From: Bdellovibrio sp. ZAP7
Lineage (GTDB): Bacteria > Bdellovibrionota > Bdellovibrionia > Bdellovibrionales > Bdellovibrionaceae
Assembly (NCBI RefSeq): GCF_006874645.1
Contig: NZ_CP030082.1
Location: 3,906,001 to 3,970,000 of the forward strand
Direction of reading: 5' to 3'
Length of the DNA: 64,000 nt
Shown: piece by piece, positions 1,064-28,576 of the stretch
How the letters are laid out: the number at the start of each line of letters is the position of its first letter
Position numbering within the stretch: position 1 is the stretch's first letter
Notes under the pieces: model-generated
The model's database searches: none
What the model saw: the letters and a program-made list of their open reading frames with translations, nothing else
What the model was told of the DNA's origin: nothing
Made by a program: the position numbers and the translations under genes

Positions 1064-1993
1064 TTATTGATTTGAATCTTCAGAAGTTCGGCCAAGGACA
1101 AAGATATCCTTAAGCTCTTTTAAACCATCGTGCAGCGTGTATTTACAGTTAAAGCCCGTTGCTTCGATTTTGCCGTTAGAAATCACGTAGTCCCTTTTAT
1201 CGGGATCTTTCATGTCGTGATTCGCTGTGATCTTTAAATCGGGAATAATCTTTTTAATTTCTTGGCAGAGTTCAAGCTTAGTCATATTTGCGGCGGTCAA
1301 ACCAACGTTAAATATTTCGCCTCTCAGGTGATTCCAGTTTTCCAGAGCGTGCACGTAAACGCGGGCGGCATCTGCGACGTGCAGGAAGTTTCGGCGAAAG
1401 TGGCCTTCAAACAGATGAATTTCTTTATCCGTTTGCGCCTTCCACATAAAATCATTCACCAGAAGATCATAGCGCATGCGATAGCTTGCTCCGAACAGAG
1501 TCGCGAAACGAAAGGAAACCGAATTGCCGTGATCAAGGACCGCTTTTTCCGTTTCCACTTTTAATCTCGCATAATGGGATAAGGGCTTTAAGGGGCTATT
1601 CTCGTCACAATGAGCCTCGCCTCCCACGCCGTAACCACTGTTGGTCATTGGGAAAAGAACTGCTTGGTTTTTAGAGAGGAGTTTCAATGCATCAGCAATG
1701 GCCTGATGGTTGATAGCGGTCGCAAGGTCTGTGAACTTCTCGCAAACCGGGGCACCCGTTAAACATGCAAGTGGAATAAAGGCATCGGCTTGCTTCAGCC
1801 ATTCAAGATAGGCTGAATGATTTCTGACGTCTGTCTTCTTTAGCTGAAACTTTCTGTTTTTTAGGTGGCCTTGAAAAACTTTCTGGTTATAGCGGAAATC
1901 ATCCAGCGCAAAGACTTCGTGGCCTGAAGCCAAAAGTAGATCAACGAGTTGCGTTCCTTTATAACCTGCGGCCCCTGTAACTAGGATCTTCAT
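1064..1993 (-). CDS. Extended SDR: NAD-dependent sugar epimerase/dehydratase/reductase
   Basis: 309 aa. It has the extended short-chain dehydrogenase layout: an N-terminal Rossmann motif MKILVTGAAGYKG (Gly7, Gly10, Gly13), an acidic DD at 31-32 at the end of beta-2 favouring NAD(H), Thr/Ser at TNSGYG (117-119), and the catalytic pair Tyr141 and Lys145 in SHYARLKVE. These enzymes oxidise, epimerise or reduce nucleotide-linked hexoses. It is the last gene of a five-gene minus-strand operon and its ATG overlaps the stop of the transketolase C-terminal gene by 4 bp. In that context an attractive role is the final keto reduction or epimerisation of a branched deoxysugar, by analogy with YerF of yersiniose synthesis; this is inference. 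Confidence 0.85.
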   Translation of the reverse strand: MKILVTGAAGYKGTQLVDLLLASGHEVFALDDFRYNQKVFQGHLKNRKFQLKKTDVRNHSAYLEWLKQADAFIPLACLTGAPVCEKFTDLATAINHQAIADALKLLSKNQAVLFPMTNSGYGVGGEAHCDENSPLKPLSHYARLKVETEKAVLDHGNSVSFRFATLFGASYRMRYDLLVNDFMWKAQTDKEIHLFEGHFRRNFLHVADAARVYVHALENWNHLRGEIFNVGLTAANMTKLELCQEIKKIIPDLKITANHDMKDPDKRDYVISNGKIEATGFNCKYTLHDGLKELKDIFVLGRTSEDSNQ

Positions 1994-2916
1994 GCCATCA
2001 CTTCTTCAAAGAATTCAGCAATATTAAGACCGAGGTCGGCTCTTAAAACTTCTCGGCCGCCGTACTTATAGGTGTAACCACCTTCCATACTTAAGGCCAT
2101 GCGTTTTACTGCGCATTTCAAATTCCAATCGACCACTGTCTCGGCAATCAAAGTTCCCAAGCCGCCGTTTTTGAAATGCTCTTCAAGGCAGATAACATGG
2201 GAGAATGGTTGCAGCTCTTTACGAAGGCTTTCGTGAACTTTATCAAGTCTTGCGACCTCGATGATATTAAGTTCCTTATTCGATTTCATGATTTCAGGAA
2301 CTTTCGCCACCAGATTTCCCGTCACCAGCAACGCTTTTAAAGATCTGGTTTTTCTGATGTACCTAAAGCCTGTTGAGAAATTCATCTCGGACTCACCTGG
2401 GACATGTGGAAGTACCTCACGGTCCAGACGAATATAGCGTGGAGTTTTTGGGTGCTCTAGAACGTATTTGGCTGCAGCTTCAGCATTCACCGAGCTTGAG
2501 ATATTTAAGATTTCGATATTTGGGAACGCGCGCATCACAGCGACATCTTCAATTCCGTGATGAGTGGGCCCTGAGTCTGCGTAACTGAATCCTCCACCCA
2601 CGCCAATGATTTGCACGGGAAGTTTCATGATCGACATTTGCACGCGAATTTTTTCAAGGCAGTTCACTGTGATGAAAGAAGCGATAGCAAAAGTAAATGC
2701 TTTCTTTCCTTCCAAAGCCAAACCAGAAGCTACAAGAATGGCATTTTGCTCTGAAATACCGGCGTTATAAAACTGGCCCGGTAAATTGCGACGGATCAGA
2801 TCCAGAGCCGGAGCTCCCATGTCCGCGGAAATCAAAACAACATCGCGATCAATTTTACCGCGCTCGTAAAGTTCAGAAAGAAAAGCATCACGTTGTGACA
2901 TTTCTGATTGCGCCAT
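1990..2916 (-). CDS. Transketolase-like C-terminal subunit
   Basis: 308 aa, the length expected for the pyrimidine-binding plus C-terminal domains of a split transketolase. Seen in sequence: the family Glu that activates the thiamine N1' in FYNAGISEQNAI, the SYADSGPTHHGIEDVAVMR segment typical of the Pyr domain, and a C-terminal Rossmann-like domain from about residue 190. It would pair with the subunit encoded immediately upstream (1-bp overlap of stop and start) to form one thiamine-diphosphate site at the interface. Split transketolases occur in several bacteria; one inside a sugar locus, next to a deoxysugar dehydratase, suggests transfer of a two-carbon ketol unit to a nucleotide sugar and not a pentose-phosphate role. 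That role is inferred. Confidence 0.88.
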   Translation of the reverse strand: MAQSEMSQRDAFLSELYERGKIDRDVVLISADMGAPALDLIRRNLPGQFYNAGISEQNAILVASGLALEGKKAFTFAIASFITVNCLEKIRVQMSIMKLPVQIIGVGGGFSYADSGPTHHGIEDVAVMRAFPNIEILNISSSVNAEAAAKYVLEHPKTPRYIRLDREVLPHVPGESEMNFSTGFRYIRKTRSLKALLVTGNLVAKVPEIMKSNKELNIIEVARLDKVHESLRKELQPFSHVICLEEHFKNGGLGTLIAETVVDWNLKCAVKRMALSMEGGYTYKYGGREVLRADLGLNIAEFFEEVMA

Positions 2917-3746
2917 TAGATGATTCCTTTCGCTAGATCTTTGCGGGCTTGGTCGATTCCCTTGGCCCCTTGCGGAGGAACTCCGTGCAGGACTGGAATA
3001 TGGGACATCGATTGAATGCCGGCACCCTTAGTGGTTTCGGCAATAATGACTGTAGGCTGACGGTACTTGCGACTGCGTAGGTTTTGCATGCTGTTGATCA
3101 GTTCTTCCGTGCTATGACCATTTACTGTGACAACGTTAAAACCGAAAGATTCAAATTTTTTGTCGAGTGGCTCAAGGGCTACCATGTTTTCCGTGAAGTC
3201 AGTCGTCGCCATAAAGTTACGATCCACGATCACGACCAGGTTATTAAGCTGATTGTGGGCAGCAAACATAGCGGATTCCCAGATGGAACCCTCATACAGT
3301 TCACCGTCCCCTAACAGACAATAAACCAAATGCAATTCACGGTTCATTTTTGCAGCTAACGCCACGCCTGCCGCGACACCCAAACCATGCCCCAAAGCTC
3401 CCGTTGTAAGTTCAACACCAGGAACACTGTTTTGTAAGTGCACGCCGAAATTTCCGTTTTTCTGTGCGAAACCTTGCAACCAGTCTTTCGGGAAGAATCC
3501 TTTACTGGAAAGGACACTGTAAATCAAAGGGCTGCATTGTCCCTTACTGATGATCACACGATCACGACCGGACCACTTTGGTTCCAGAGGATTTACATTT
3601 ACAAGACCGCCGAAGTACAAGCTGATTAGAATTTCCACAGCTGACATCGAAGACGTCACGTGGCCCGTTCCGGCTTCGATACACATTTCCAGCACTTCTG
3701 TGCGTGTGTCGTGGGCTAGTTTTTTTAGTTCATCGTGAGTCATCAT
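2916..3746 (-). CDS. Transketolase-like N-terminal (TPP-binding) subunit
   Basis: 276 aa. It carries the thiamine-diphosphate pyrophosphate domain: TGALGHGLGVAAG, then the GDG motif in LLGDGELYEGSIWES with the Mg-binding Asn about 28 residues later in VVIVDRNFMATTD. The C-terminus ends in HGVPPQGAKGIDQARKDL, as in split transketolases. Two ATGs (3746 and 3743) are possible starts; both overlap the stop of the upstream dehydratase gene, giving translational coupling. With the following gene it makes a complete heteromeric enzyme. A second full-length housekeeping transketolase would be expected elsewhere in the genome if this one is dedicated to the glycan pathway. Confidence 0.88.
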   Translation of the reverse strand: MMTHDELKKLAHDTRTEVLEMCIEAGTGHVTSSMSAVEILISLYFGGLVNVNPLEPKWSGRDRVIISKGQCSPLIYSVLSSKGFFPKDWLQGFAQKNGNFGVHLQNSVPGVELTTGALGHGLGVAAGVALAAKMNRELHLVYCLLGDGELYEGSIWESAMFAAHNQLNNLVVIVDRNFMATTDFTENMVALEPLDKKFESFGFNVVTVNGHSTEELINSMQNLRSRKYRQPTVIIAETTKGAGIQSMSHIPVLHGVPPQGAKGIDQARKDLAKGII

Positions 3747-4921
3747 TTTGCCACCTCGTTCAGTGCCTTACAGAGCTGATCAATCCATTTAAGGGGAAGG
3801 GACGGAAAGTTCCCGATATAAAATCCGTTATGATGGATTTGTTCTGTATTCACAAATGCCGTCGGATCGATATCAATCCCGCGTGTTTTTAAAAATCCTT
3901 GGCGAAGTTGATTTCCTCCACCAGACATTCCCCGGCGGTACTCGACTCCCAAATCCATTAGAACTTTTTCCACTTTAGATTTTAAATGCACTTTCTCTGG
4001 AAGGATTTGCAGTAAAAGAGCATAGCTGGAACTGCCCTTGGTGTTGTACTGGGTAAAGTATGTCTTTTTATCCAAGGCCTTTAGGAATCTTTGCAGGCGA
4101 ATACTTCTTTGCGTGTTGTTTTTATCCAGACGCTTTAATTGATTGAGGCCTAAAACTGCACCCAATTCGTTGTTGCGAAAGTTAAACCCCACCACTGGAA
4201 AATCAAATTCTTTATAGACTTGTTTTGAATTGCCTAAATGCTTTTGCAATTGAGCTGGATCAGTGGATTCACGCAATAGACCGTGTCCCCGCTTAATTCG
4301 CACCAGTTGCGCGAATTCAGGATCATTGCTGCACACCATGCCGCCTTCAATCGTTGTCATGTGATGGCCATAGTAAAAGGAAAAGTTTGAGGCAAAGCCG
4401 ATGCTTCCCACTTTTTTAGAACCCATTTTAGCGCCATGGGATTCACAGGCATCTTCAATTAATGGAATATTGTGCTTTTTTAAAAGATCCTGCAGCTGAG
4501 TGCTTAAACCATTCAATCCCAGAATATGCGTAAGAAAAACGGCTTTGGTATTCTTGGTGATGGCCTTTTTAGTGGCTTCATAATCAAGAGCCAATGTCTC
4601 GGGATTGATATCAACAAAAACTGGGGTAAATCCGTTTTCGATGATGGAAACGACGTCCGAAACCCAGGTCAAAGGTGGAACGATCACCTCACCCACACCC
4701 GCGATATCTCTTAGTGCAGAAAGGGTCAGGAAATTTGCTGCCGAACCTGAGCTTACAAAAATGCTGTGCTTTACACCCAACCACTTTGACCACTCTTGTT
4801 CAAACTTCTTTACTTTCTCACCTTGAGTGAAGCGATCAGAAGTCATGATGTGCTTTACCAGAGCCGTCTTATCTGCGTCGGTGATATTGTTTTGAATCAA
4901 AGGCCAACGAAAGTTATTCAT
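3743..4921 (-). CDS. DegT/DnrJ-fold sugar 3-dehydratase, ColD-like (catalytic Lys replaced by His)
   Basis: 392 aa, fold-type I PLP enzyme of the DegT/DnrJ/EryC1/StrS family, with VSSGSAANFL for phosphate binding and PLIEDACESHGA containing the pyridine-nitrogen Asp. Where sugar aminotransferases carry the Schiff-base Lys (pattern FSF-x3-K-N), this protein reads FSFYYGHHMTTIEGG, placing His186 at that position. In the characterised dehydratases ColD and E1/AscC, a His at this site uses pyridoxamine phosphate to remove the C3 hydroxyl of 4-keto-6-deoxysugars. The four-Cys Fe-S motif of E1 is absent, so it is closer to ColD (GDP-4-keto-6-deoxymannose 3-dehydratase). It overlaps the radical SAM gene by 8 bp and the transketolase gene by 4 bp. 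Substrate nucleotide is unproven. Confidence 0.85.
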   Translation of the reverse strand: MNNFRWPLIQNNITDADKTALVKHIMTSDRFTQGEKVKKFEQEWSKWLGVKHSIFVSSGSAANFLTLSALRDIAGVGEVIVPPLTWVSDVVSIIENGFTPVFVDINPETLALDYEATKKAITKNTKAVFLTHILGLNGLSTQLQDLLKKHNIPLIEDACESHGAKMGSKKVGSIGFASNFSFYYGHHMTTIEGGMVCSNDPEFAQLVRIKRGHGLLRESTDPAQLQKHLGNSKQVYKEFDFPVVGFNFRNNELGAVLGLNQLKRLDKNNTQRSIRLQRFLKALDKKTYFTQYNTKGSSSYALLLQILPEKVHLKSKVEKVLMDLGVEYRRGMSGGGNQLRQGFLKTRGIDIDPTAFVNTEQIHHNGFYIGNFPSLPLKWIDQLCKALNEVAK

Positions 4922-6413
4922 AAGAGGCCTTTGCCAAAACTTTATCCAAAGAATATTTGCGACTGAGTTTTATCTTTTTCAAATTCTCAATATATTCAAA
5001 TGTCTTTGGTCCAAACTTGGATTTGATCAAATTCAAATAGGCAGGGCTATTGTGATAAATGCTCCACGCTTGATCACGGAATGTTAAAACTTCAGCGGAG
5101 CTGATGTGCTTTGTCGGTAAAGGCTTGCAATCATAGGAGTGCTGACTGTAACCCAACCAATTTTCGGGAAGCTCAACATTATTACGAACGGCTTCGCGAT
5201 AAAGCTCTGATCCGGGATAGGCCATCGCAGAGTAGAAATTTGCGGTTTCCAGATTCAGCTCAACCGCCAGATCCAAACTTCTTTGCATGGTATCTAAAGT
5301 ATCGTCTGGAAGACCAAAGACAAAGTTTCCATGAACGTGGATTCCGCCATCTTTAAGCATCTTGGTTTTTTCAAAGATATCGTTTTCAGTATAACGACCC
5401 TTGTTCACTCCGGTTCTCACTGTTTGATCAAAGGCTTCAATACCTAGAACAATCCAGTTAATACCGGCCTTTTTTAGTTTTTCCACGTGTTGCGGCTTCA
5501 CCGTATCGATGCGACCGAATACCCAGATGTTGAAGTTATATTTTCTTTCAATTAAAAGGTCGGCGATCTTTAAGAAATGTTCTTCTTTCAAAACGAACAT
5601 CTCGTCAGCGATCTTGATATTTTTTACTCCCATGGAAGCAAAGACATCAAATTGCTTGATGATGTGATCCGGCTGCCAATAACGAAATGTGCCCTGTTTT
5701 CCAAAGGGAGCACTAATGCAACAAAAGCTACAACGAAACGGACAACCCAAACTCGTATACACGGTCGCATAAGGCTGGCGATCTTCGATATGATCAAAAC
5801 AATGCCAGTTCGGAGCTTTATAATTTCCCGTTGGCAGAGACTGTAAATCCACTTCGGGAAACACGACGTGTAATTGATTTTGCTCAATTAAAGACGCTGT
5901 TGGATTATGTTGAATGTGTCCGTCTTCTCGGAACCACAGGCCAGGAACTTTTTTTAAGGTGTTTGTATCTTTGAAGTTTGTTTTTAACAAAGCATCCAAA
6001 GTTTTAGGCCCTTCTCCCTCGCACACAAAATCACACGCCTCATCCTGCATTGTTCGCAGAGGTAATGCTGAGATATGGCCACCAAGCATGATAATCTTTA
6101 ATTCGGGAGCAAGTTTCTTTAACTCCGTACACAGATAGCTTGCACCAAACATCGCTTGCGTCGAGGCAGAAGGATGCTGCCCATAAACAACAATACAAAT
6201 CAAGCGAGGGCGGAGATATGAAACGCGATCATACGTTTGCGCGACGGTCAGATTTTCCGCCGCACAATCCACTTGGTCTGCTGAGTGCCCCATGGTTTTC
6301 ATAGAGGCCGTAAGCATCCCCATCCACACTGGCATTTCCAGTGTAGCGACACCGCCACTCAGGTTTTGATAGACGTGTTCAGATATGGGTGGATTCAAAA
6401 ATAATATATCCAA
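4914..6413 (-). CDS. B12-binding-type radical SAM enzyme
   Basis: 499 aa, first gene of the minus-strand sugar operon. Residues 1-150 form the cobalamin-binding-like Rossmann domain seen in B12-radical SAM proteins (start MDILFLNPPI, middle IIMLGGHISALP, and DFVCEGEGPKTL), although the classical DxHxxG motif is not evident. The radical SAM core begins near residue 215 with Cys224-x3-Cys228-x2-Cys231 in LGCPFRCSFC, which binds the 4Fe-4S cluster. A TIM-barrel follows with GIEAFDQTVRTGVNKG and VHGNFVFGLPDDT. The start is TTG at 6413, supported by GGAG 7 nt upstream. Family members methylate unactivated carbons or rearrange substrates; here it may modify the sugar or a lipid carrier. The reaction cannot be deduced from sequence. 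Confidence 0.85.
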   Translation of the reverse strand: MDILFLNPPISEHVYQNLSGGVATLEMPVWMGMLTASMKTMGHSADQVDCAAENLTVAQTYDRVSYLRPRLICIVVYGQHPSASTQAMFGASYLCTELKKLAPELKIIMLGGHISALPLRTMQDEACDFVCEGEGPKTLDALLKTNFKDTNTLKKVPGLWFREDGHIQHNPTASLIEQNQLHVVFPEVDLQSLPTGNYKAPNWHCFDHIEDRQPYATVYTSLGCPFRCSFCCISAPFGKQGTFRYWQPDHIIKQFDVFASMGVKNIKIADEMFVLKEEHFLKIADLLIERKYNFNIWVFGRIDTVKPQHVEKLKKAGINWIVLGIEAFDQTVRTGVNKGRYTENDIFEKTKMLKDGGIHVHGNFVFGLPDDTLDTMQRSLDLAVELNLETANFYSAMAYPGSELYREAVRNNVELPENWLGYSQHSYDCKPLPTKHISSAEVLTFRDQAWSIYHNSPAYLNLIKSKFGPKTFEYIENLKKIKLSRKYSLDKVLAKASYE

Positions 6414-6466
6414 AATTACTCCAAAAATATTATTTGGATAAACAGAGGTTTGTGCAATAATTAATC
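6414..6466. promoter_or_regulatory. Divergent intergenic region
   Basis: This 53-bp AT-rich gap separates the divergent sugar operon and the membrane protein gene at 6467. It must hold promoters for both or overlap the coding starts. Several TATTAT/TAATAT-like hexamers are visible but none can be assigned with confidence. Confidence 0.35.
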
Positions 6467-7975
6467 ATGTTATTATATTGCATTATATTCTTGCTCGTCG
6501 TGGTGTACTGGCCCGTCAGTATGTTCTGGGAACAAGACATTTTATGGGCTCGTGGAATTTCCAATTACATCGATTGGCCGGTTCACTTTGCGCAAGCCTC
6601 AAAGGTGCGTTATCAAACCATCGTTGAATGGTACACGCACAACCCCTTCGTGTATGGCGCGCGCAACAACTATCCCTTCTGGGCGGATGTTCCATCAGGA
6701 TTGTTGTTAAGACTGGGGCTTCCCTTTAAAACTGCTTTTTTAATTCCTTCAGTCCTCTTTACGGTTCTGTTCTTTTATTGTTCTTACGGGTTTTTGAAAA
6801 AAAGAAGCTTTTCGCACAACTCCATCGCGGCTGTCCTTTTTCTTTTTCTATTCGCGAGCATGCCGACGGGAGAAGGAACGCAGCCTCAACTGTGGTTAAA
6901 CACATTTAGCCCGAATCGCAGCCTTCTGATTACGTTTTCATTGCTCTTAGTTGTTTATGATATTTTTAGCGACTTTTTAACCAATCAAACTGTGCCCAAC
7001 CTGAAAACACGAGTGATGACTTGGTTAAAACTTACCTTCATCACGCTGATTATGTGTATGACTCACCCCCATACACTTCTTTCAACCGCAGTTGTCGCCA
7101 CCGTGTTTTCGATAGTGACCTTTAATAAAAAGCGCAAGATTCCAGTTGAAGCTGTGGCCTGGGCCATCACAAGTCTCGCAATTATTCTGACCTTTAAACA
7201 TTATCTGTGGAGTGAAGCGACAACGGGATACCCGATCTTCAGACCCAATTGGACTCAGGAGCGTTTCGCCATCAGTCCGTGGATGTTTTGGCCAACTTAC
7301 GGTGGTATCGTTTATTTGCTGGGACTTTACTTTGGTATCGTCAAAAAGCGCTACGTGGAACTTGCAATTATTCTGATTTTAACGGCTCTGCATTTACTGT
7401 TTCAGTGGCAGATCAACGAGTATGACAATATCAAGAACACTTTGATTATGATGTTCTTGTGCACAGTTCTTATCGTTGAATTCTTCCCGTCTAAAAAAGG
7501 GCTCGCCGTTCTGTGTATCATTTGCGTTTTGCCGTCTTTGCGAGAGTGGACGGAAATTTATCCCCTAACGAGTCGTGAAGAAATGGCTTTGGCAGACAAG
7601 CTGCAAGCTGAAACCCCTAAAAACTATGTCGCCATTATTGATAGTCGTCACAATCATCCCGTACCAATGTTCACTTCCATTCCTGTCATGGCGTGGTGGG
7701 ATTTTTATTCTTGGACTTTGGGACTTCGTAATAACCGTGAAACTATTTTTAGAATGGAAATGCTCAGAAGACCTTTGGAGATGACTTTCGTAAAACCTTT
7801 GTTAGTGATCTCAAGAGACGATGGAAGTTATTCTGACTATGAAACCTCAGGAAGATTCAAAGATCTAACAGGGATCTATTTGCAGTTTGATAAATCTGCC
7901 CTAAAGGATGTTCCTGTATTTGACAAAGGTGCCGGCTACACGATCTATCGTAAATTCGGAATAGAAGGTCAGTGA
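6467..7975 (+). CDS. Polytopic membrane protein of the glycan locus, possible GT-C-type enzyme
   Basis: 502 aa with about 10-12 hydrophobic segments and an acidic first extracytoplasmic loop containing WEQDILWARGISNYIDWP. Acidic residues in the first loop are usual in GT-C-fold glycosyltransferases that use polyprenyl-phosphate sugars. A soluble C-terminal part of about 110 residues follows the last membrane segment (from TSREEMALADKL). I do not recognise a specific family. The start at ATG 6467 has no convincing Shine-Dalgarno. Its 3' end overlaps the convergent GT2 gene by 7 bp. The presence of a polyprenyl-phosphate glycosyltransferase next door suggests it could use the lipid-linked sugar that enzyme makes; this is an inference. 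Confidence 0.7.
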   Translation: MLLYCIIFLLVVVYWPVSMFWEQDILWARGISNYIDWPVHFAQASKVRYQTIVEWYTHNPFVYGARNNYPFWADVPSGLLLRLGLPFKTAFLIPSVLFTVLFFYCSYGFLKKRSFSHNSIAAVLFLFLFASMPTGEGTQPQLWLNTFSPNRSLLITFSLLLVVYDIFSDFLTNQTVPNLKTRVMTWLKLTFITLIMCMTHPHTLLSTAVVATVFSIVTFNKKRKIPVEAVAWAITSLAIILTFKHYLWSEATTGYPIFRPNWTQERFAISPWMFWPTYGGIVYLLGLYFGIVKKRYVELAIILILTALHLLFQWQINEYDNIKNTLIMMFLCTVLIVEFFPSKKGLAVLCIICVLPSLREWTEIYPLTSREEMALADKLQAETPKNYVAIIDSRHNHPVPMFTSIPVMAWWDFYSWTLGLRNNRETIFRMEMLRRPLEMTFVKPLLVISRDDGSYSDYETSGRFKDLTGIYLQFDKSALKDVPVFDKGAGYTIYRKFGIEGQ

Positions 7976-8901
7976 CCTTCTAAGTTCACCTGTTCATTCA
8001 CGATATAGTGGGGGCGATTGCGAGTCGCCGTGTGCACTTGGCGGATATAAAATCCAAAAAGCCATACAATATAAAAGAGCGCCGAAAAACCAAAACTAAC
8101 AATCGCAAGAAGCAAACTGTTTTGATTGAAGTTTTTTAACACTGAAAACCCACTCCACAATGCTCCCAATAAAAAGAGTGAGCCCAGGAAAAATGGCAAA
8201 TGCAGAGGGAAATAAGAGAAGTGTGTCCACGCTCTGAAAAATTCCAAATAGCTGCGTGGCCCGCCCAAAGAAAAATTTGTTTCCCCGGCAAAACGAGGCT
8301 GTCTTTTGAATGGAAGATAAGCTTGTTTTAAGCCAATCCAATCTGTGTAAGCTCTAAAGTAAGGATCTACCTCCCCCGACTTTAAAATTTCATTTACTGC
8401 CCGACGGGTGAGAAGTTTAAAGTTTCCGCAATCGACTGAGTATTTAAAAGGATAGGATGCCGACAAAATTCGGTAAGAAAGCTTCAGCATGATGCGCTTG
8501 TAAAGCGTTTCACCATGGCGCTCCACCATGTGAGTATTTACGACATCTGCCTGAGTAGTCTTCCAAAGTTTTACCAGTTCCTCGAATAATTCTGGCGGAT
8601 CTTGTAAATCGGAATCCATGGTGATCACTAAGTCACCTTTGGCCACTTTAAGTCCGGCAAAAAAGCATATATCGCGCCCCATTTGGCGAGTCATCTGCAA
8701 TAGACGAATGCGTTTATCATTTTGAATAGCTTCTTTAATCAAGTGGGGGGAAAAATCTTTGGAATGATCATCAACGAAGATCATTTCGCCATCGATGCCG
8801 AAGTCTTGCTTAAGTTTATTTAAAGCGGCTGAACATCTTGAGATGAACTCAACAATGGTAGCACCCTCATTCAAATTAGTAAGTACGACTGATAGAAGCA
8901 T
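7969..8901 (-). CDS. Family 2 glycosyltransferase, GtrB/DPM1-like (polyprenyl-phosphate sugar synthase)
   Basis: 310 aa from ATG 8901; a GTG three codons earlier (8910) is the alternative start. The N-terminal GT-A domain opens with LLSVVLTNLNEG, followed by IFVDDHSKD and the donor/metal motif MDSDLQDPPE. ARAWTHFSYFPLHLPF and two C-terminal transmembrane helices (about residues 225-250 and 260-285) match GtrB/DPM1-type enzymes, which transfer a sugar from a nucleotide donor to undecaprenyl phosphate at the inner face of the membrane. The lipid-linked sugar then serves membrane glycosyltransferases, several of which are encoded nearby. The gene is convergent with the membrane protein at 6467 and divergent from the one at 8948. 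Confidence 0.88.
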   Translation of the reverse strand: MLLSVVLTNLNEGATIVEFISRCSAALNKLKQDFGIDGEMIFVDDHSKDFSPHLIKEAIQNDKRIRLLQMTRQMGRDICFFAGLKVAKGDLVITMDSDLQDPPELFEELVKLWKTTQADVVNTHMVERHGETLYKRIMLKLSYRILSASYPFKYSVDCGNFKLLTRRAVNEILKSGEVDPYFRAYTDWIGLKQAYLPFKRQPRFAGETNFSLGGPRSYLEFFRAWTHFSYFPLHLPFFLGSLFLLGALWSGFSVLKNFNQNSLLLAIVSFGFSALFYIVWLFGFYIRQVHTATRNRPHYIVNEQVNLEGH

Positions 8902-8947
8902 GTTATCCACTTTGCCATAGGGATTTTAATCATGCTAGCTTTAATGA

Positions 8948-10411
8948 ATGAAGAACTTTGGCTCTACGATCAAGATCATCTTTTACTATATTATTCCCTT
9001 TGTTTTTATCGCAAGCTATCTGTTCACAGCTGTGAAAGAAACTCAATATGGGCTCAATCGTGACTATGCCGAAGGGACCACTCTGGCTTTTGTAGAAAAA
9101 TGGAGAACCAGCGAAAGTCCCCGTGTCCTTTATTCCTCTGAAAATTTTGAACAAGGAAGTATTACCGGATATCCGTTCGCGCACTTAGGGTTGGTGACGG
9201 CAGTCAGCCACGATGCCGGCAGCGCTTTATCTTCCGGAAGAATCATCTCAGTGGTTTCCGCTTTGTTAATGGCTTTAATCGCTTGGTTGATTCTGGCGAA
9301 TTTTGAGTTGGTGAAACTTCAACACCTTCCCCTGCTAGCTACTTTGATTCTGTATCAAACCGCCATTTTTGATTGGTCTCTGCTCGCGCGGTCCGACCTG
9401 CTGGCTGCATTGTTTGAAATACTGGGCATTTTGTTTTATGTACGAAGTTTAAAAACAAATCGCGTCTTGTTAGTTCCGTCTTTGATATGTTTTCTGCTCG
9501 CATTCTTCTGCAAACAGAACTCCATTGCGGGACTTCTCGTGGTCTTTGCCTTTGAGTTCTGGCGCGCTCCCACGCGGACTTTGAAATCTGCACCAATCTA
9601 TCTTTTAACCACCGCGGCTGTCTTTGGCATTGTCACATGGACGTTTGGAGTGAGTTATTGGGAACACACAGTGACTCAACTTGGTGGGCAATCCTGGTAT
9701 TTTTCGCGCCTTGTGCAAATGCTTTCAAGTTATCTAGTGTCTCATCTGTATATTTTTATTCTTTCGCTCTTGGCGCTATTCCTGGTACCTATCAAAAAGC
9801 CGCTTAAGAATTTTCTGATTGCGTGGGTTGCAATCGGTTTCCTCCTGGTACTTTTAGGATTAGGTCGCTCGGGATCGAATTTTAATTACTTTATCTCCTT
9901 GAGTATTCCGATGGGAATGTTGGCGTTCTTGAGTATTCAAAATCTGCTGAATGCTGAGCTCGCTCTGAAATCAATTGCGGCGATATCGATTGTCGCCGTC
10001 TTCATGGGATCTGCTTTCTTTGAAAACCATGGATTATCCGGAAGGTTAACTTATCTTGATCACCGCGCTTGGCCGCCGACACGATCTGATGCTGAAAAGG
10101 CAATCGAGAATACGAAATCACATCTAACAGGATTTTCGGCGACAAATCTATTTTGTGATGAGCCGGGCATTTGTACCCTTGTGGGTTTTACACCTGATTT
10201 TACCTATTTTGAGAACAATATGAATACTCAATTGGGTAATCAAAAGAGCTTTGATCACTATGACACTTTATTACTGACTGAGTATCCAAGTGAAAACCTG
10301 ACTTGGACAAAGTTCAAACTACCTGCGGGGTTTGTCAAAACGATTCACGAAAAGTATGAACTTCGCAGAATCTCGGATCTGGGATTTATTTTTACACGTA
10401 AAGAATTATAA
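8948..10411 (+). CDS. Polytopic GT-C-like membrane glycosyltransferase (PMT/GT39-like)
   Basis: 487 aa with about 10 membrane segments. The first periplasmic loop has NRDYAEGTT (Asp-Tyr-x-Glu), resembling the catalytic acidic position of protein-mannosyltransferase-like GT-C enzymes. RSDLLAALFEILG, FFCKQNSIAG and GLGRSGSNFNYF are motifs also found in the protein at 16213-17661 (GRLDGVALFFQMMG, IFTKQSALWV, GMGREGSGSNF), so the two are paralogues of one family. A soluble C-terminal region of about 120 residues with two Cys (FCDEPGIC) follows. Family assignment rests on this layout; acceptor and sugar are unknown. Its stop overlaps the convergent small gene by 6 bp. Confidence 0.72.
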   Translation: MKNFGSTIKIIFYYIIPFVFIASYLFTAVKETQYGLNRDYAEGTTLAFVEKWRTSESPRVLYSSENFEQGSITGYPFAHLGLVTAVSHDAGSALSSGRIISVVSALLMALIAWLILANFELVKLQHLPLLATLILYQTAIFDWSLLARSDLLAALFEILGILFYVRSLKTNRVLLVPSLICFLLAFFCKQNSIAGLLVVFAFEFWRAPTRTLKSAPIYLLTTAAVFGIVTWTFGVSYWEHTVTQLGGQSWYFSRLVQMLSSYLVSHLYIFILSLLALFLVPIKKPLKNFLIAWVAIGFLLVLLGLGRSGSNFNYFISLSIPMGMLAFLSIQNLLNAELALKSIAAISIVAVFMGSAFFENHGLSGRLTYLDHRAWPPTRSDAEKAIENTKSHLTGFSATNLFCDEPGICTLVGFTPDFTYFENNMNTQLGNQKSFDHYDTLLLTEYPSENLTWTKFKLPAGFVKTIHEKYELRRISDLGFIFTRKEL

Positions 10412-10762
10412 GAACTGGCAGCGATTATTCTGAATTACTGCCACGCGATCTAGAATGCAATTGTACTTAAAGCCGAACCAGCCGGGATTTTGAACCCAGG
10501 AAACATCTGATATTTCCTTTTTTAGCAAGTACGCTTCTGCATTTGCATTCAAAGCTGGAACACGAATGACTACTAAGCCCGGCAAGTGATCCCAATCAGC
10601 TTTTTCCCCAACTGGTGAACACAGCTGCTGGGAGTATTGAATCTTCTGTAAGTGGCAAGCTTGATCCTGGGATACGAAATAGTAATAGCGATGGCTTGCC
10701 GCAATCACGGCGATCACAAATCCCAAAGACAAAACTAGAAAGGTCTTATTCGCTACTTTCAT
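10406..10762 (-). CDS. Small membrane-anchored or secreted protein of unknown function
   Basis: 118 aa. Residues 5-25 (NKTFLVLSLGFVIAVIAASH) are a signal anchor or signal peptide and the rest is a soluble domain with four Cys residues (CHLQ, LCSP, NCIL, RCQF), consistent with two disulfides in the periplasm. WVQNPGWFGFKYN is a conspicuous aromatic stretch. I do not recognise a family. It is convergent with the GT-C-like gene (6-bp overlap) and diverges from the GDP-fucose-synthase-like gene 47 bp away. A frame on the other strand spans part of it, but this frame has the more protein-like composition. Confidence 0.55.
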   Translation of the reverse strand: MKVANKTFLVLSLGFVIAVIAASHRYYYFVSQDQACHLQKIQYSQQLCSPVGEKADWDHLPGLVVIRVPALNANAEAYLLKKEISDVSWVQNPGWFGFKYNCILDRVAVIQNNRCQFL

Positions 10763-10809
10763 TCAGATTAATTCTTGCCTTCAGCACCTGCTTAGTCACT
10801 AAATTAACT

Positions 10810-11715
10810 ATGGTAAATAAGAAATTATTGCTACTGGGCAGCTCAGGATTAATTGGCAGTGCGATCTTTAGAAAACTCACTGATCTAAAGTCATTTGAGA
10901 TTCTAACTCCTTCTTCGTATGAATTAGATCTACGCGATTCCTTTGCCGTGGATAGATACTTTCAAACCCACAAACCTACCCACGTCATTCACGCCGCCGG
11001 CAAAAGTGGCGGAGTCTATGCAAACGTCAATAATCCAAGCACCTTTTCGGTTGAAAATACCCTGATGACCGTCAACGTCCTGCAATCTGCATTCAAAGCC
11101 GAGACAAAAAGACTCTTACAATTCATTCCGTCTTGTATTTATCCGCTGAGTGCTGAGCTTCCCTACAAAGAGGAAGCCATCGGTTCGGGGCACATTGAGG
11201 AATCCAGTAAATATTTTGCCTATGCAAAACTAAATGCACTGATGATGGCTCAAGCCTTCAATCAACAGCATAAGACCGAATTTATCTCTATCATCCCAAG
11301 TAACGTCTATGGTTTAGCGATCAAATCGGCCTCCGAGAACTCTCATGTAATCCCCTCACTGGTTCATCGCATGTTGGTTGCAGTAAAAACCAATCAAAAA
11401 GACATTCAAATCTGGGGTGACGGAAAAAATAAAAGGGACTTCCTTTATTCCGACGATCTGGCCGAAGCCACCTTGATGATTTTAAATCATGCCTCGCCAA
11501 AGCCAGTCATCAATGTGGCCAGTGGAGAAGTTGTTTCGATCAGCTCATTGGCTGAACTGATCCGCGAAACCGTGGATTACAAAGGAACTCTTAATTACAA
11601 GAACAACGGCTTAGCCGGGGCAGCTCACAAGTATCTGGATTCGTCGACGGCAAATGCCCTGGGCTGGAAAGCGCGCACGTCTCTGAAAGACGGCATCAGA
11701 TCTTTACTAGTTTAA
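10810..11715 (+). CDS. GDP-L-fucose synthase-like SDR lacking the reductase Ser and Tyr
   Basis: 301 aa from ATG 10810; an open frame extends upstream to 10615 but the Rossmann start MVNKKLLLLGSSGLIGSA sets the N-terminus. It aligns without gaps over the active site with E. coli GDP-fucose synthase (Fcl/WcaG), which both epimerises C3/C5 and reduces the 4-keto group of GDP-4-keto-6-deoxymannose. Conserved here are Cys109 (PSCIYP), Lys140, Asn165 (PSNVYG), His179 and Arg187 (SHVIPSLVHR). Changed are Ser107 to Pro and Tyr136 to Phe (KYFAYAK). Cys109 and His179 are the epimerisation acid/base pair; Ser and Tyr serve reduction, so an epimerase-dominant activity is plausible. It ends 20 bp inside the convergent dioxygenase gene. 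Confidence 0.85.
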   Translation: MVNKKLLLLGSSGLIGSAIFRKLTDLKSFEILTPSSYELDLRDSFAVDRYFQTHKPTHVIHAAGKSGGVYANVNNPSTFSVENTLMTVNVLQSAFKAETKRLLQFIPSCIYPLSAELPYKEEAIGSGHIEESSKYFAYAKLNALMMAQAFNQQHKTEFISIIPSNVYGLAIKSASENSHVIPSLVHRMLVAVKTNQKDIQIWGDGKNKRDFLYSDDLAEATLMILNHASPKPVINVASGEVVSISSLAELIRETVDYKGTLNYKNNGLAGAAHKYLDSSTANALGWKARTSLKDGIRSLLV

Positions 11716-12604
11716 TATTTGCGGGATGGCGCATGCCATCTGGCGGATTGAATACATCGTCTTCGCCATCGGGAGAAGACACACGTAAAGATTTTCCTAT
11801 TTCAAAGAACTGTTCAGTAGACAGCTTTTGGCGTTCGACCAAAAGATTCTTGTCATCTTTATAGATATTCTGATCGTAAGACTTCAAAACAACGTTCAAA
11901 TCAATAGAAACCCTGGAACCAGCGCTTTCTGCACGATGAGTTCCATGCAGCAACGAAGAATCCACCATCAGCATATTGCCTGCAATATTATTAACATCCA
12001 ATTCGGTGCTGTCTTGAATAAGTTCTTGAGCCTCGTGATAGCTGGAAAGAGGCTTTAACCAGCTCGATTCAAACTTCTCGCCCGGCATCCACACTTTCAA
12101 CAAGTTATTTGAAAGATCACCCAGAATAGGAATATGCAATAGAACTGAACGCAACGAACATCCCACCCAAGTTTCAGAGTGAGGAAGCTCTGTTGGATAG
12201 GCCCGCGAACCAGATCCATGATCAGTTCCTTTTAATCGGATATTAAATGGGTATATCCAAAACTCCACCGCATCCGCAATTTGGGATTGCTCTAGGATTT
12301 CCGCAATCGTTTGATGAACTTCGGTGAACTTGTGATCGCAATATGATTTTGGAATGACGATTCCTGACGTACTGATGTTTTTGGCCTTGGAAGGAAAATC
12401 AGTCAGTGCCTTTTGCAAATCACCGTCGTGAAACTCGTTAGCTCCACAGGACACCTTTAGGTATTCTTGCACCTGAATCTGCAATTTAGAGAACAAATGA
12501 AAAGGAATTCTGAAACTCGCCGTCAACGGCGCTTGTGATCTAAATCCGGTACGGGAGATAGCTTCGTCAAAGAACTTCTTTCTTTGGAAATGGTATTCGT
12601 TCAT
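11696..12604 (-). CDS. Putative Fe(II)/2-oxoglutarate dioxygenase, PhyH-like
   Basis: 302 aa. A double-stranded beta-helix dioxygenase is suggested by the spaced triad candidates His142-Ser-Glu144 (ELPHSETWVG), His220 or His223 (LLHGTHR) and Arg231 (SRVSIDLN), the last matching the 2-oxoglutarate carboxylate-binding Arg. Phytanoyl-CoA-dioxygenase-like proteins are frequent in sugar and natural-product loci, where they hydroxylate or oxidise the small molecule. There is no signal peptide, so it should act in the cytoplasm. It overlaps the nucleotidyltransferase gene by 4 bp, and both probably act on the same product. HxE in place of HxD is a known variation but weakens the call. Confidence 0.6.
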   Translation of the reverse strand: MNEYHFQRKKFFDEAISRTGFRSQAPLTASFRIPFHLFSKLQIQVQEYLKVSCGANEFHDGDLQKALTDFPSKAKNISTSGIVIPKSYCDHKFTEVHQTIAEILEQSQIADAVEFWIYPFNIRLKGTDHGSGSRAYPTELPHSETWVGCSLRSVLLHIPILGDLSNNLLKVWMPGEKFESSWLKPLSSYHEAQELIQDSTELDVNNIAGNMLMVDSSLLHGTHRAESAGSRVSIDLNVVLKSYDQNIYKDDKNLLVERQKLSTEQFFEIGKSLRVSSPDGEDDVFNPPDGMRHPANIKLVKI

Positions 12605-13320
12605 ACCGCTGCCTTTTTGAAAGTGCCCTGAAGGTGTTTAAATCCGGACTCGGTTCCAAAATCTATTTCATCGAATGGATACGCGGTAAACTTTGCGCGC
12701 GCTTTGATTTTATCAAAAACATCTTTTTCATAGGAACAGAACACCGGTAAATCAAAGCTGTGCCAGTTACGAACAATTTCTGAACTTAGAACCGACAGTC
12801 CCGTATAGATATATGAAGGCGTCTGATATAGATCCGGCCAGGCATAAGCTTCTTGCTTACTAATCTCATGAAATGAGGACGTGTGCACAAAAGTGCGCAT
12901 ATAGAAAACGGCGTCCTTATTCCCCATCGATTGCGACTTTACGAGCTCAAATGGATTTTCGGAAAAATAAGTATCTGCATTCGAAAGGATAAAATACTTT
13001 TCTTGCAAATAAGGAGCGATCAACGTCAACGCCCCACCTGTTCCCAAACGGACTTTTTCCTCTGGAAAAGAGAAGCGCATTGGATAGTTCAACTTGCGAA
13101 CTGCATTTTCAATGATTTCACGATTTGGCCCACCCAGGATGATGACTTGTTCAATCCCTGCAGCGTTTGCTTGCGCCAATAGGTAATCCAAAAACACGCG
13201 GCCCGAAAATTCGCTCAGGCACTTCACATGACTTTCGGAATTCAAAAAACTGTTTAGCCGAGAGGCCATGCCCCCAGCCAAGAGAACTAAAGTTTTTGAT
13301 TCCAATTCCGAATTTACCAA
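12601..13320 (-). CDS. Sugar-1-phosphate nucleotidyltransferase, HddC-like
   Basis: 239 aa if started at TTG 13320, chosen because GAGGG lies 10 nt upstream and the family begins just before the nucleotide-binding motif. ATG 13368 (in frame, 16 codons longer) is the alternative and would overlap the divergent kinase gene. The signature LVLLAGGMASRL binds the NTP, LGTGGALTLIAPYL follows, and SNADTYF carries the metal Asp. These features match D-glycero-alpha-D-manno-heptose-1-phosphate guanylyltransferases and related MobA-like/NTP_transferase proteins. The adjacent divergent HddA-like kinase supports synthesis of a nucleotide-activated heptose; a glucose- or mannose-type substrate is not excluded. 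Confidence 0.8.
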   Translation of the reverse strand: MVNSELESKTLVLLAGGMASRLNSFLNSESHVKCLSEFSGRVFLDYLLAQANAAGIEQVIILGGPNREIIENAVRKLNYPMRFSFPEEKVRLGTGGALTLIAPYLQEKYFILSNADTYFSENPFELVKSQSMGNKDAVFYMRTFVHTSSFHEISKQEAYAWPDLYQTPSYIYTGLSVLSSEIVRNWHSFDLPVFCSYEKDVFDKIKARAKFTAYPFDEIDFGTESGFKHLQGTFKKAAV

Positions 13321-13336
13321 AGTAGCATTTCCCTCA

Positions 13337-14239
13337 ATGGTATTTAAATCGAGTATTCCATATCGCATAGGTTTAATTGGAGGCGGAACAGATCTGCCTT
13401 TTTTTACCAACAAACATGGAACCGAAGTCATCAATGCTTCGTTTAAAGCCTTCTCTCATTGTGAAATTCGAAAAATCCAAAGTCCACACATTTTTATTGA
13501 GACCAATGATTACAAAACGCAGGTTCAGGTCGATAAACTTCCAGAGATGGTGCTGATTTCCAGAGATGAATTTCGCATCAGCCTGGCTGTTCTGAACAAC
13601 TTCGCAGATCTTGTAACCTCACTGGGTGGTGGCCTGCATATCAAGACATATTCAGAGTTTGCACCGCAGACTGGCTTGGGCGGAAGTTCCGCACATTTAA
13701 TCGCGGTGTTAAAGGCTTGTTTAAATTATCTGAATCTTGATTGGGATAATAAACAGATTTTGGACACGGCTCATTCGCTTGAGCGGGACACGCTGAGCAT
13801 CTTTGGTGGATTTCAGGATTTCTATCCGTGCCTTTATCAGGGCGCACATCATCTTTCCAAAGATCCAGGTTCTGAAATCATCCACCGCACGTTGGATGGA
13901 AATTTCCTAAAAGAGTTGGATTTGTCTTTCTTTATCACGGAATCTTCGGCAGTCAGCTTGGGTGAGACAGACCTACCAGAACTGAACTCTCTAAAGATTC
14001 AAAAGGATCTGGCTCATCAAGCCGCAAATGCCTGGAAGCAAGGTCAACACTCCGTTTTCAAGAAATTGCTGCAAGAAAGCTGGCAAGCCAAAAGCCAATC
14101 AGCAAATCTTCCCCATGTATTCGCAACTAAGACCTGCGGACTTTCAAAAAGAATGAACGTCGTCGCTGTGGAAAAATCCCTGGAAAAATCATTCACCGAA
14201 AGCAGTGGCTATGCAGCTCGAAAAATTGAATGGTATTAG
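13337..14239 (+). CDS. GHMP-family sugar kinase, HddA-like heptose 7-phosphate kinase
   Basis: 300 aa from ATG 13337; the frame is open upstream but the conserved N-terminus SSIPYRIGLIGGGTDLPFF starts here. The GHMP ATP-binding motif appears as TGLGGSSAHLIAVLKA (about residues 108-123) and the C-terminal motif region is near the NVVAVEKSLEKS tail. GGGTDLPFF is characteristic of D-glycero-D-manno-heptose 7-phosphate 1-kinases (HddA) and related L-fucose kinases. With the divergent HddC-like gene it would supply the 1-phosphate for nucleotide activation. GmhA and GmhB, also needed for the GDP-heptose route, are not in this window. The final codons overlap the start of the next membrane-protein gene. 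Confidence 0.82.
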   Translation: MVFKSSIPYRIGLIGGGTDLPFFTNKHGTEVINASFKAFSHCEIRKIQSPHIFIETNDYKTQVQVDKLPEMVLISRDEFRISLAVLNNFADLVTSLGGGLHIKTYSEFAPQTGLGGSSAHLIAVLKACLNYLNLDWDNKQILDTAHSLERDTLSIFGGFQDFYPCLYQGAHHLSKDPGSEIIHRTLDGNFLKELDLSFFITESSAVSLGETDLPELNSLKIQKDLAHQAANAWKQGQHSVFKKLLQESWQAKSQSANLPHVFATKTCGLSKRMNVVAVEKSLEKSFTESSGYAARKIEWY

Positions 14240-16262: not shown

Positions 16263-17661
16263 GTCGATAAGCCGTTTCTATGGCTTTTAGGATGTTGTCA
16301 GAAAATCTTTGAACTGTCGGAAGATACTTATTTCTTTCCATGACAATCATGGCAACTTTCTTATCTTCAATATCTTTTACGAAAAAAAACTCGTCCAGCT
16401 TTCCACGAGCCACGGCCTGCTTATATTCAAAAGGGAAAAATTCAATGTCTTTCCCGGCAAATAATAACAACGCGGGATTATCAGACCACACTGGGCCATC
16501 CGCGCTTTTAATTCTTTCAATTACAATTTCTGTGCTTTGTTTTACCTCTTCTGACCAAGCTGTTACAAAGGTCGGGACACCCGGATCTTTCAAAAAGTAA
16601 GTTCGATAACGCATGTTCTGCCAACAAGTCGCAACGATAAGAATCGCGGCAACAGCAGACCACTTCCAGGATTTGCTCAAGGCTTCAATCCCGCGCATCG
16701 TTAGCCAAGTCAAAACAACACAGAACTCGAGAAGAAAATTCGAACCACTGCCTTCTCGTCCCATACCCCAAACATATATTAGCGAAAGCAGACCAAGAAT
16801 AATTACCAGCTGATCGCGACCACGGATTTGAAGTTTTGATACCCCAAATGCAGTCACCAATAGAATTCCCAAATGGAACAGTCCATTTTCTTTGAGAGAA
16901 ATCAGCAAGTTAGACAAATGATAGCTATTATTATTCGATGAAAACAGATGTCCGAACAGAGTATTTTCACTGAAGTAATTCAATGACATGAAACCCGTAA
17001 TCAGTCCGACGGCAAACACGACCCACGACTTCTCGAATTTTCGATTTATCAAATCATAAAGAAACAACGAACATGGAACCCACAGCGCTGATTGTTTTGT
17101 AAAGATCGCTAGAAAAAAGCAAATCATCGCCATGAATCGCGAGCTGCCTTGATTTTTTTCCCGAAGATACAGGAAAAGCCCCATCATCTGAAAGAACAGG
17201 GCCACACCATCTAGTCTTCCCATTCCTGTCCAATTGAAAACGGGATACCAGGAAATCCACAACAAAAATGGCAAAGCCCAATCTATCGCGGTGGCTTTTT
17301 CGCTCTTGCCATCGACATAAAACTTAGAAATAAGCACACCCGTAAGAAGCAAGGAGACGGTGTTCAAAATTCTTGCTTCGCGAAGCCACATAATCGGATC
17401 TGATCCTAATATGCTTACAACAGATTGAAAAAGAGGCGTGTAAGAAAAATAATTAGCAGAATCAAATGCAGAAGCTCGATACGGAAAGAACCCATCGAAC
17501 AAAATCTTTACCTGATAAAGAATCGTCGACTCACCATAATCAATTGTGTAAGGAAAGCGAATAATCTGAAAGGCTCTGGCAACAACAGCCATATAGCAAA
17601 GTAAACCGTAACCCAAAATTACGAGGGTCAGGGGCTTTAGCATTTTCGGATTAAATCGCAT
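16213..17661 (-). CDS. Polytopic GT-C-like membrane glycosyltransferase, paralogue of 8948-10411
   Basis: 482 aa from ATG 17661; a GTG at 17664 is also possible. The pilin-like gene stop and this ATG share a base (TGATG), so translation is coupled. It has about 10 membrane segments, an outer loop with IDYGESTILYQ (Asp-Tyr-Gly-Glu, as NRDYAEGTT in its paralogue), then GRLDGVALFFQMMG, IFTKQSALWV and GMGREGSGSNF, all shared with 8948-10411. A C-terminal soluble part of about 120 residues follows the last helix. Shared acidic outer-loop residues suggest GT-C chemistry with a lipid-linked sugar donor. Pairing with a Thr-rich secreted protein makes that protein a candidate acceptor, which is inference. 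Confidence 0.72.
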   Translation of the reverse strand: MRFNPKMLKPLTLVILGYGLLCYMAVVARAFQIIRFPYTIDYGESTILYQVKILFDGFFPYRASAFDSANYFSYTPLFQSVVSILGSDPIMWLREARILNTVSLLLTGVLISKFYVDGKSEKATAIDWALPFLLWISWYPVFNWTGMGRLDGVALFFQMMGLFLYLREKNQGSSRFMAMICFFLAIFTKQSALWVPCSLFLYDLINRKFEKSWVVFAVGLITGFMSLNYFSENTLFGHLFSSNNNSYHLSNLLISLKENGLFHLGILLVTAFGVSKLQIRGRDQLVIILGLLSLIYVWGMGREGSGSNFLLEFCVVLTWLTMRGIEALSKSWKWSAVAAILIVATCWQNMRYRTYFLKDPGVPTFVTAWSEEVKQSTEIVIERIKSADGPVWSDNPALLLFAGKDIEFFPFEYKQAVARGKLDEFFFVKDIEDKKVAMIVMERNKYLPTVQRFSDNILKAIETAYRPSYQNDYYLVIVPGKL

Positions 17662-28519: not shown

Positions 28520-28550
28520 TTTGTGTTTCAAATGCCTATGAGACTAAAAA

Positions 28551-28576
28551 GGGAATCCAACCGGATTCCCTTTTTT
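28551..28576. terminator. Bidirectional terminator
   Basis: GGGAATCC (28551-28558) and GGATTCCC (28563-28570) form an 8-bp stem with a 4-nt loop, flanked by A-run and T-run. It serves the PilZ-like gene and the convergent gene ending at 28575. Confidence 0.85.

What the first reader, a model, noticed from the sequence alone, without database searches (positions are those of the whole stretch)
1064..6413. Split transketolase plus His-type sugar dehydratase: candidate branched-deoxysugar pathway
A five-gene overlapping operon joins a B12-type radical SAM enzyme, a ColD-like dehydratase with His186 in place of Lys, a complete two-subunit thiamine-diphosphate transketolase and an extended SDR. 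In yersiniose synthesis a 3-dehydrase, a TPP enzyme (YerE) and an SDR (YerF) make a C4-branched 3,6-dideoxysugar. Here the transketolase would replace YerE and add a ketol unit, and the radical SAM protein may add a further change. I do not know a described system with this exact set; this is inferred.
Basis: partly seen in the sequence, partly recalled or inferred. Interest (0 to 1): 0.75.

Follow-up and report, generated by a model that had tools for sequence, protein, structure and literature searches.

The report
Branched-sugar operon with remodelled transketolase
A five-gene operon in a Bdellovibrio-type predatory bacterium, with rearranged counterparts in many distant bacteria, very probably builds an unusual branched surface sugar, using a two-part transketolase whose active site has changed so that it is no longer the ordinary sugar-phosphate enzyme.

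Summary
In detail: five overlapping genes (6413→1064, minus strand) encode a B12-type radical SAM protein, a ColD-like dehydratase (His186), both halves of a transketolase (TK) and an SDR. (1) The SDR is not a YerF-like end reductase: its only close solved relative is 6vo6, which I recall as Cj1427, the GDP-heptose C4-dehydrogenase of Campylobacter, so it probably makes the 4-keto group. (2) Across 369 Bdellovibrionota genomes the radical SAM protein and this SDR co-occur (p=3e-23). In 20 of 24 radical SAM loci a two-subunit ThDP enzyme lies within about 10 kb: split TK in 14, pyruvate-dehydrogenase E1 alpha/beta in 6. This swap argues for two-carbon transfer onto a keto sugar and against a pentose-phosphate role. 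(3) All 22 cluster TK C-terminal subunits have lost E. coli TK residues H461, D469 and F434 but keep the ThDP/catalytic residues. (4) The genome has a separate full-length TK. Plasmids of Azospirillum and Solidesulfovibrio carry related sets; the latter adds L-2-hydroxyglutarate oxidase, the expected recycler. Inferred product: a C4-branched 3-deoxy GDP-sugar, heptose-based in relatives, uncertain here (no GmhA found). The radical SAM step is unknown.

The parts
4914..6413 (-). B12-binding radical SAM protein (499 aa), HpnJ/BchE/AprD4-like; role unknown, constant partner of the ThDP enzyme
   Evidence: PF02310 + PF04055; best NCBIfam HpnJ 147.8 bits, below cut-off 577.6; PDB best 6fd2 AprD4; CxxxCxxC conserved
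3743..4921 (-). DegT-family PLP 3-dehydratase, His186 for the Schiff-base Lys (ColD-like)
   Evidence: PDB best ColD 2gms, E 7e-47, H186 = ColD H188 column; His conserved in window-like and all E1-type relatives
2916..3746 (-). split transketolase N-terminal (ThDP-binding) subunit, 276 aa
   Evidence: PF00456; 6yak split TK E 2e-64; H26, D155, N185, H261 kept, H66 to Gln
1990..2916 (-). split transketolase C-terminal (pyrimidine-binding) subunit, 308 aa, remodelled substrate site
   Evidence: PF02779; E411 and H473 kept; F434I, S385P, H461G, D469S relative to E. coli TktA
1064..1993 (-). extended SDR, Cj1427-type NDP-heptose C4-dehydrogenase (proposed 4-keto former)
   Evidence: 6vo6/6vo8, 284 bits vs 62 for the next PDB family
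10819..11715 (+). Fcl/GDP-fucose-synthase-like SDR, candidate late reductase/epimerase
   Evidence: NF047922 264.5 bits, below cut-off 500; Fcl-like genes recur in related loci
12601..13434 (-). HddC-like sugar-1-phosphate nucleotidyltransferase (start uncertain)
   Evidence: NF049965 48 bits, below cut-off 300
13268..14239 (+). GHMP kinase, HddA-like (start uncertain, probably near 13334)
   Evidence: NF049969 88 bits, below cut-off 600; PF00288; HddA-like kinases recur in related loci
7969..8910 (-). polyprenyl-phosphate glycosyltransferase-like GT2
   Evidence: PF00535; PgfS/ArnC-like by NCBIfam, below cut-offs
6467..7975 (+). multi-membrane-spanning protein (502 aa, GT-C-like by size and topology only)
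   Evidence: no Pfam match; at least 6 hydrophobic segments; conserved next to the operon in G022 and G011

Best explanation
The operon makes a C4-branched 3-deoxy nucleotide sugar, most likely GDP-linked, for a surface glycan. [quoted passage not shown] (2) the His-type DegT enzyme removes the 3-OH with PLP/PMP, giving the 3-deoxy-4-keto sugar; (3) the two-subunit, active-site-remodelled transketolase adds a two-carbon ketol (glycoloyl) unit to the C4 ketone, giving a tertiary alcohol branch (relatives with E1 alpha/beta would add an acetyl unit instead); (4) the HpnJ-like radical SAM protein makes a further radical change to the sugar (methylation, dehydration or ring/skeleton change; not resolved), and an Fcl-like SDR may reduce or epimerise. 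Shown here by sequence: gene identities, His186, co-conservation, the TK/E1 swap, TK residue changes. Inferred: every reaction, substrate and product.
For: SDR: 6vo6 at 284 bits (that this entry is Cj1427 is from memory). Cj1427 plus a C3-dehydratase makes GDP-3-deoxy-4-keto-heptose in vitro (PMC10680097). DegT H186 = ColD His188. rSAM/SDR genome co-occurrence 20/22 vs 11/347, p=3e-23; window-like TK vs rSAM p=2e-14. ThDP pair in 20 of 24 rSAM loci, 14 TK and 6 E1 alpha/beta, never both; order E1a-DegT-E1b-rSAM-SDR in L117 mirrors the window with E1 in place of TK. Remodelled residues in 22/22 cluster TKs vs canonical H461/D469 in 75/78 others, the genome's own full-length TK and 15/20 same-phylum controls; the 15-member rSAM-type TK clade has support 100/100. 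D469 and H461 variants of E. coli TK improve activity on a non-hydroxylated aldehyde (PMC3657141). L-2-hydroxyglutarate oxidase above its cut-off in the Solidesulfovibrio cluster, weaker relatives in L162, L118, L154.
Against: No reaction or product is known. No GmhA/SIS_2 protein and no LhgO-like protein was found in this genome, and its HddA/HddC-like proteins score far below curated cut-offs, so the heptose substrate is unproven here. In five loci of one family the nearby DegT is Lys-type, so 3-deoxygenation is not universal. Acceptance of a ketone has not been shown experimentally for any TK (PMC12247030). Sampling is one phylum plus plasmids.
Confidence: 0.6

Rival explanations
1. The split transketolase only supplies sedoheptulose-7-phosphate (or another sugar phosphate) as precursor for heptose synthesis; it does no branching.
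For: Heptose-type genes (HddA/HddC/GmhA-like) recur in related loci, and sedoheptulose-7-P is the entry point of GDP-heptose synthesis (PMC10680097).
Against: H461, S385 and D469 are lost in 22/22 cluster TKs but kept in the genome's own full-length TK; PDH-E1-type pairs, which cannot make sedoheptulose-7-P, occupy the same slot in six loci; no GmhA was found in this genome.
Confidence: 0.1
2. The ThDP enzyme and the radical SAM protein build a different part of the glycan (a second sugar, a lipid or an acyloin side group), and the SDR/DegT pair makes an ordinary 3-deoxy sugar independently.
For: In loci with the SDR but no rSAM, DegT or the heptose genes often occur without a nearby ThDP pair (ThDP pair in at most 3 of 11); in five loci the DegT beside rSAM/TK is Lys-type.
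Against: One overlapping operon in Bdellovibrio; DegT lies between E1 alpha and E1 beta in L117 and L151.
Confidence: 0.2
3. One reading: the SDR is a YerF-like reductase of the branch, and another enzyme forms the 4-keto sugar.
For: Yersiniose synthesis ends with an SDR, and SDRs are reversible.
Against: Closest solved relative is 6vo6 with a 220-bit gap to the next family; HddA-like genes, and in one cluster LhgO, accompany it; no 4,6-dehydratase gene was identified in the window cluster.
Confidence: 0.08

Closest known systems
Yersiniose/erwiniose pathways (3-dehydratase + YerE/ErwE + SDR)
   Same: PLP 3-dehydratase making a 3-deoxy-4-keto sugar, then a ThDP enzyme adding a carbon branch, in a surface glycan
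   Different: Transketolase or E1 type instead of YerE decarboxylase type; GDP-linked (probably heptose) rather than CDP-hexose; ColD-type dehydratase; 4-keto made by a Cj1427-type dehydrogenase; extra radical SAM protein
Campylobacter jejuni GDP-heptose pathways (Cj1427, C3-dehydratase of HS:5)
   Same: C4-dehydrogenase relative, PLP C3-dehydratase, HddA/HddC/GmhA-like genes in related loci
   Different: No ThDP ligase and no radical SAM protein described there; Cj1427 and the HS:5 dehydratase were combined only in vitro (PMC10680097)
Miharamycin/amipurimycin split-gene transketolases (Streptomyces)
   Same: Two-gene transketolase proposed to move a hydroxyacetyl unit onto a keto sugar
   Different: Nucleoside antibiotics, no Cj1427/ColD-type partners described; function still unproven (PMC12247030)
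AviB1/AviB2 and Pau11/Pau12 (avilamycin, paulomycin) E1 alpha/beta enzymes
   Same: Same enzyme type as the E1 pairs replacing TK in six related loci; linked to two-carbon sugar branches (PMC4425429)
   Different: Act in antibiotic glycosides from pyruvate; the window has the TK type
HpnJ (radical SAM, bacteriohopanetetrol cyclitol ether)
   Same: Best-scoring named family; works on a sugar (glucosamine) moiety (PMC12583986)
   Different: 147.8 bits against a cut-off of 577.6; no hopanoid context seen

Membership tests
Yersiniose-type pathway | YerE-type (decarboxylase/AHAS superfamily) ThDP enzyme | tested here: not met
   ThDP enzyme is a two-subunit transketolase
Yersiniose-type pathway | final YerF-like SDR | tested here: inconclusive
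   Operon SDR is Cj1427-type; an Fcl-like SDR lies 9 kb away; no YerF sequence was compared
Cj1427-type GDP-heptose C4-dehydrogenase | sequence clearly closest to Cj1427 (6vo6) | tested here: met
   E 1e-83, 284 bits, next PDB family 62 bits; identity of 6vo6 with Cj1427 from memory
Cj1427-type GDP-heptose C4-dehydrogenase | alpha-ketoglutarate-dependent ping-pong oxidation of GDP-heptose | not testable with these tools
   Indirect: LhgO in the Solidesulfovibrio cluster; none found in G000
ColD-type PLP 3-dehydratase | His in place of the Schiff-base Lys, closest to ColD | tested here: met
Canonical (pentose-phosphate) transketolase | ThDP-binding and catalytic residues (GDG..N, E411, H473, H26, H261) | tested here: met
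Canonical (pentose-phosphate) transketolase | substrate-site residues H461, D469, S385, F434 | tested here: not met
   G, S, P, I in the window; H461/D469/F434 changed in 22/22 cluster TKs
HpnJ radical SAM | NCBIfam TIGR03471 curated cut-off | tested here: not met
   147.8 vs 577.6 bits
GDP-heptose synthesis (GmhA, HddA, HddC) | GmhA present | tested here: not met
   No TIGR00441 or PF13580 match in G000; present in L117, L128, L129, L147, L162
GDP-heptose synthesis (GmhA, HddA, HddC) | HddA and HddC by curated cut-off | tested here: not met
   Best specific models but 88/600 and 48/300 bits
Miharamycin/amipurimycin split TK | sequence kinship and shared active-site changes | not tested

The most novel reading that the evidence does not exclude
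A widespread, undescribed pathway for C4-branched 3-deoxy sugars (probably heptose-based) in Gram-negative surface glycans, in which either a remodelled split transketolase or an E1 alpha/beta pair does ketone carboligation on a GDP-4-keto sugar, followed by a radical SAM reshaping of the branched sugar (for example carbocycle or bicycle formation), giving a sugar class not yet seen.
Probability: 0.25. Interest if true: 0.85.

Novelty: new variant of a known kind. Interest (0 to 1): 0.62.

Why it matters
No transketolase has been shown to use a ketone as acceptor, and the 13 candidates listed in a 2025 review are all from Streptomycetes (PMC12247030). This locus gives a compact, expressible gene set with predicted intermediates, two of whose steps have characterised counterparts (Cj1427, ColD/HS:5 dehydratase), so the question becomes directly testable. 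It would also add a new kind of branched sugar to the surface of predatory bacteria, where such sugars could matter for self/prey recognition (speculation), and a sequence signature (I434/G461/S469) for finding more such enzymes.

Tried and rejected
AlphaFold model of the radical SAM protein from two sequences: pLDDT 49, not used for a fold search. Papers on 'sporadic carbohydrate cluster': none. Bradyrhizose genes (PMC4743980) were considered because the sugar is bicyclic; no gene-level link could be made. Bdellovibrio O-chain structure: nothing useful found. Promoter/terminator scan of the operon: no more sites than shuffles. The genome-contig search with TKn returned mostly canonical Bacillota split TKs, useful only as controls. 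'TK and E1 mutually exclusive' holds for the rSAM loci but not generally: L151, without rSAM, has both.
Full report
Observation. The window lies in a 4.12 Mb single-contig genome (G000; window = G000:C1:3906001-3970000). The named MAG Bdellovibrio sp. BIN15 carries the same genes (L017), and its contig has the same length and gene coordinates as G010's, a genome of the window's genus, so I take the genus to be Bdellovibrio. Domain scans confirm B12-binding + radical SAM, DegT, transketolase N, transketolase pyrimidine domain and an epimerase-family SDR. His186 stands in the column of ColD His188; in the PDB alignments exactly that column is N in 3b8x and K in 2r0t.

Distribution. The same five genes in the same order occur in 4 of 24 genomes of the genus (G000, G022, G011, G010/L017) and are missing from the others searched. 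Around them, G022 and G011 also keep the 502-aa membrane protein, GT2, further membrane proteins, Fcl-like SDR, 302-aa protein, HddC-like and HddA-like genes, so the unit is a variable glycan locus of about 16 kb. In 369 genomes of the phylum, relatives of the radical SAM protein (37-52% identity outside the genus) occur in 22 genomes. The SDR (E<=1e-45) occurs in 31, 20 of them shared, Fisher p=3e-23; window-like TKn (at least 53% identity) occurs in 12 genomes, 11 with the radical SAM protein, p=2e-14. Relatedness of genomes is not corrected for in these p-values.

The ThDP slot. I fetched 24 radical SAM loci (window included) and classified ORFs with profiles. Within about 10 kb, 14 have a split TK pair (window, L119-L124, L130, L132-L137), six have a PDH-E1 alpha/beta pair (L117, L125, L126, L128, L129, L131) and four have neither: L127 and L138 are short contigs, L139 has its TK about 43 kb away on the same contig, L143 is a second, more distant radical SAM copy. 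In L117 the order is E1alpha-DegT-E1beta-radical SAM-SDR, then Fcl and GmhA: the window's gene set with E1 in place of TK. In L151 DegT again lies between E1 alpha and beta. Loci with the SDR but without the radical SAM protein have a ThDP pair nearby in at most 3 of 11 cases (Fisher p=0.002 against 20/24). E1-type enzymes cannot make sedoheptulose-7-phosphate; what the two families share is transfer of a two-carbon unit, and E1-type pairs are tied to two-carbon sugar branches in avilamycin and paulomycin (PMC4425429).

The transketolase itself. Against E. coli TktA (sequence from NC_000913) all ThDP/catalytic positions examined are kept in the window (H26, H100, D155, N185, H261, R358, E411, H473), but F434 is Ile, S385 Pro, H461 Gly, D469 Ser and, in the N-subunit, H66 Gln. 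All 22 TK C-subunits from sugar clusters have Gly at 461, Ser/Ala/Leu at 469 and Ile/Met at 434. In 78 comparison TKs, 75 have H461, 75 D469 and 78 F434; the full-length TK of the same genome has H and D. In 20 split TKs of the same phylum taken without regard to context, 15 are canonical; the other five show the cluster-type Ile434/Gly461 (four with Leu469, one cut off before that position), and two of them (G053, G009) have DegT genes within a few kb by the positions. A tree puts the 15 window-type TKs in one clade (100/100) apart from the canonical ones. In E. coli TK, D469S, D469T and D469Y raise activity on propionaldehyde and H461S was reported to improve glycolaldehyde and propionaldehyde use (PMC3657141). 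So the enzyme looks active but changed where it meets donor and acceptor. That it accepts a ketone is inference; no TK has been shown to do so (PMC12247030).

The SDR and the sugar. The SDR matches 6vo6/6vo8 at 284 bits, the next PDB family at 62. I recall these entries as Cj1427; the papers behind them are cited in PMC7949155 but were not held. [quoted passage not shown] In Solidesulfovibrio magneticus plasmid pDMC1 one run of genes has GT2, radical SAM, NUDIX, HddA-like kinase, E1alpha, E1beta, Fcl, DegT (His), SDR, HddC-like, a phospholipid-carrier glycosyltransferase, L-2-hydroxyglutarate oxidase (327.7 bits, cut-off 299) and a GmhA-like SIS protein. The oxidase is what a Cj1427-type step would need. 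Weaker relatives of it (179-224 bits, below cut-off) lie in L162 beside HddA/SDR/GmhA, on the G056 contig (L118) and in L154. Azospirillum argentinense Az39 plasmid p5 has TKc, TKn, radical SAM, SDR, kinase, nucleotidyltransferase and DegT. In the window genome HddA-like and HddC-like genes lie about 6-8 kb beyond the operon but score far below cut-offs, and no GmhA, SIS_2 or LhgO relative was found. The heptose reading is therefore good for the relatives and open for the window; GDP-mannose or an unknown isomerase are possible.

The radical SAM protein. It is the constant partner of the ThDP pair. Named families score well below cut-off, HpnJ best (147.8 of 577.6 bits); HpnJ turns a hopanoid-bound glucosamine into a cyclitol ether (PMC12583986). 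AprD4, a sugar diol dehydratase, is the nearest solved relative. This suggests a sugar-modifying reaction, but methylation, dehydration and ring change all remain candidates. The structure prediction was too poor to help.

Limits. All function is inferred from sequence and context. In five loci of one family (L130, L132, L135, L137, L139) the nearby DegT has Lys, so the deoxygenation step is not universal. Genomes other than the named records are anonymous, and collections outside this phylum were sampled only through plasmids.

Verdict. New variant of a known kind.

Noticed in passing
L151 (G271:C132:17001-37000), 5131-13622: A locus without the radical SAM protein holds both a split TK pair and an E1alpha-DegT(His)-E1beta run beside a Cj1427-type SDR and GmhA: perhaps two different branched sugars.
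   Followed up: partly
L130 11851-15939 and L135 12602-16114: Two different split TK pairs in tandem (one window-type with S469, one with L469) beside the radical SAM protein, with a Lys-type DegT: possibly two successive two-carbon additions.
   Followed up: partly
L147 (Solidesulfovibrio magneticus pDMC1) 28444-29646: L-2-hydroxyglutarate oxidase inside a sugar cluster, matching the by-product expected from a Cj1427-type dehydrogenase.
   Followed up: yes
L144/L145 (Azospirillum ramasamyi and A. lipoferum plasmids): The radical SAM protein beside an HddA-like kinase, NUDIX and Fcl, with PEP-utilising enzyme, adenylyl-sulfate kinase and sulfotransferase genes nearby, and no ThDP pair within 15-18 kb.
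   Followed up: no
L124 9561-10262, L133 6194-6895, L136 11830-12528: A recurring 230-aa glycosyltransferase-2-like protein; in L133 and L136 it lies between DegT and TKn.
   Followed up: no
window 17661-18767 (-): 368-aa protein with a pilin-like hydrophobic N-terminus and low-complexity C-terminal part, next to the glycan locus.
   Followed up: no
window 11696-12604 (-): 302-aa protein with only sub-threshold 2OG-Fe(II) oxygenase similarity (TIGR04324, PF13759); conserved in G022 and G011.
   Followed up: no
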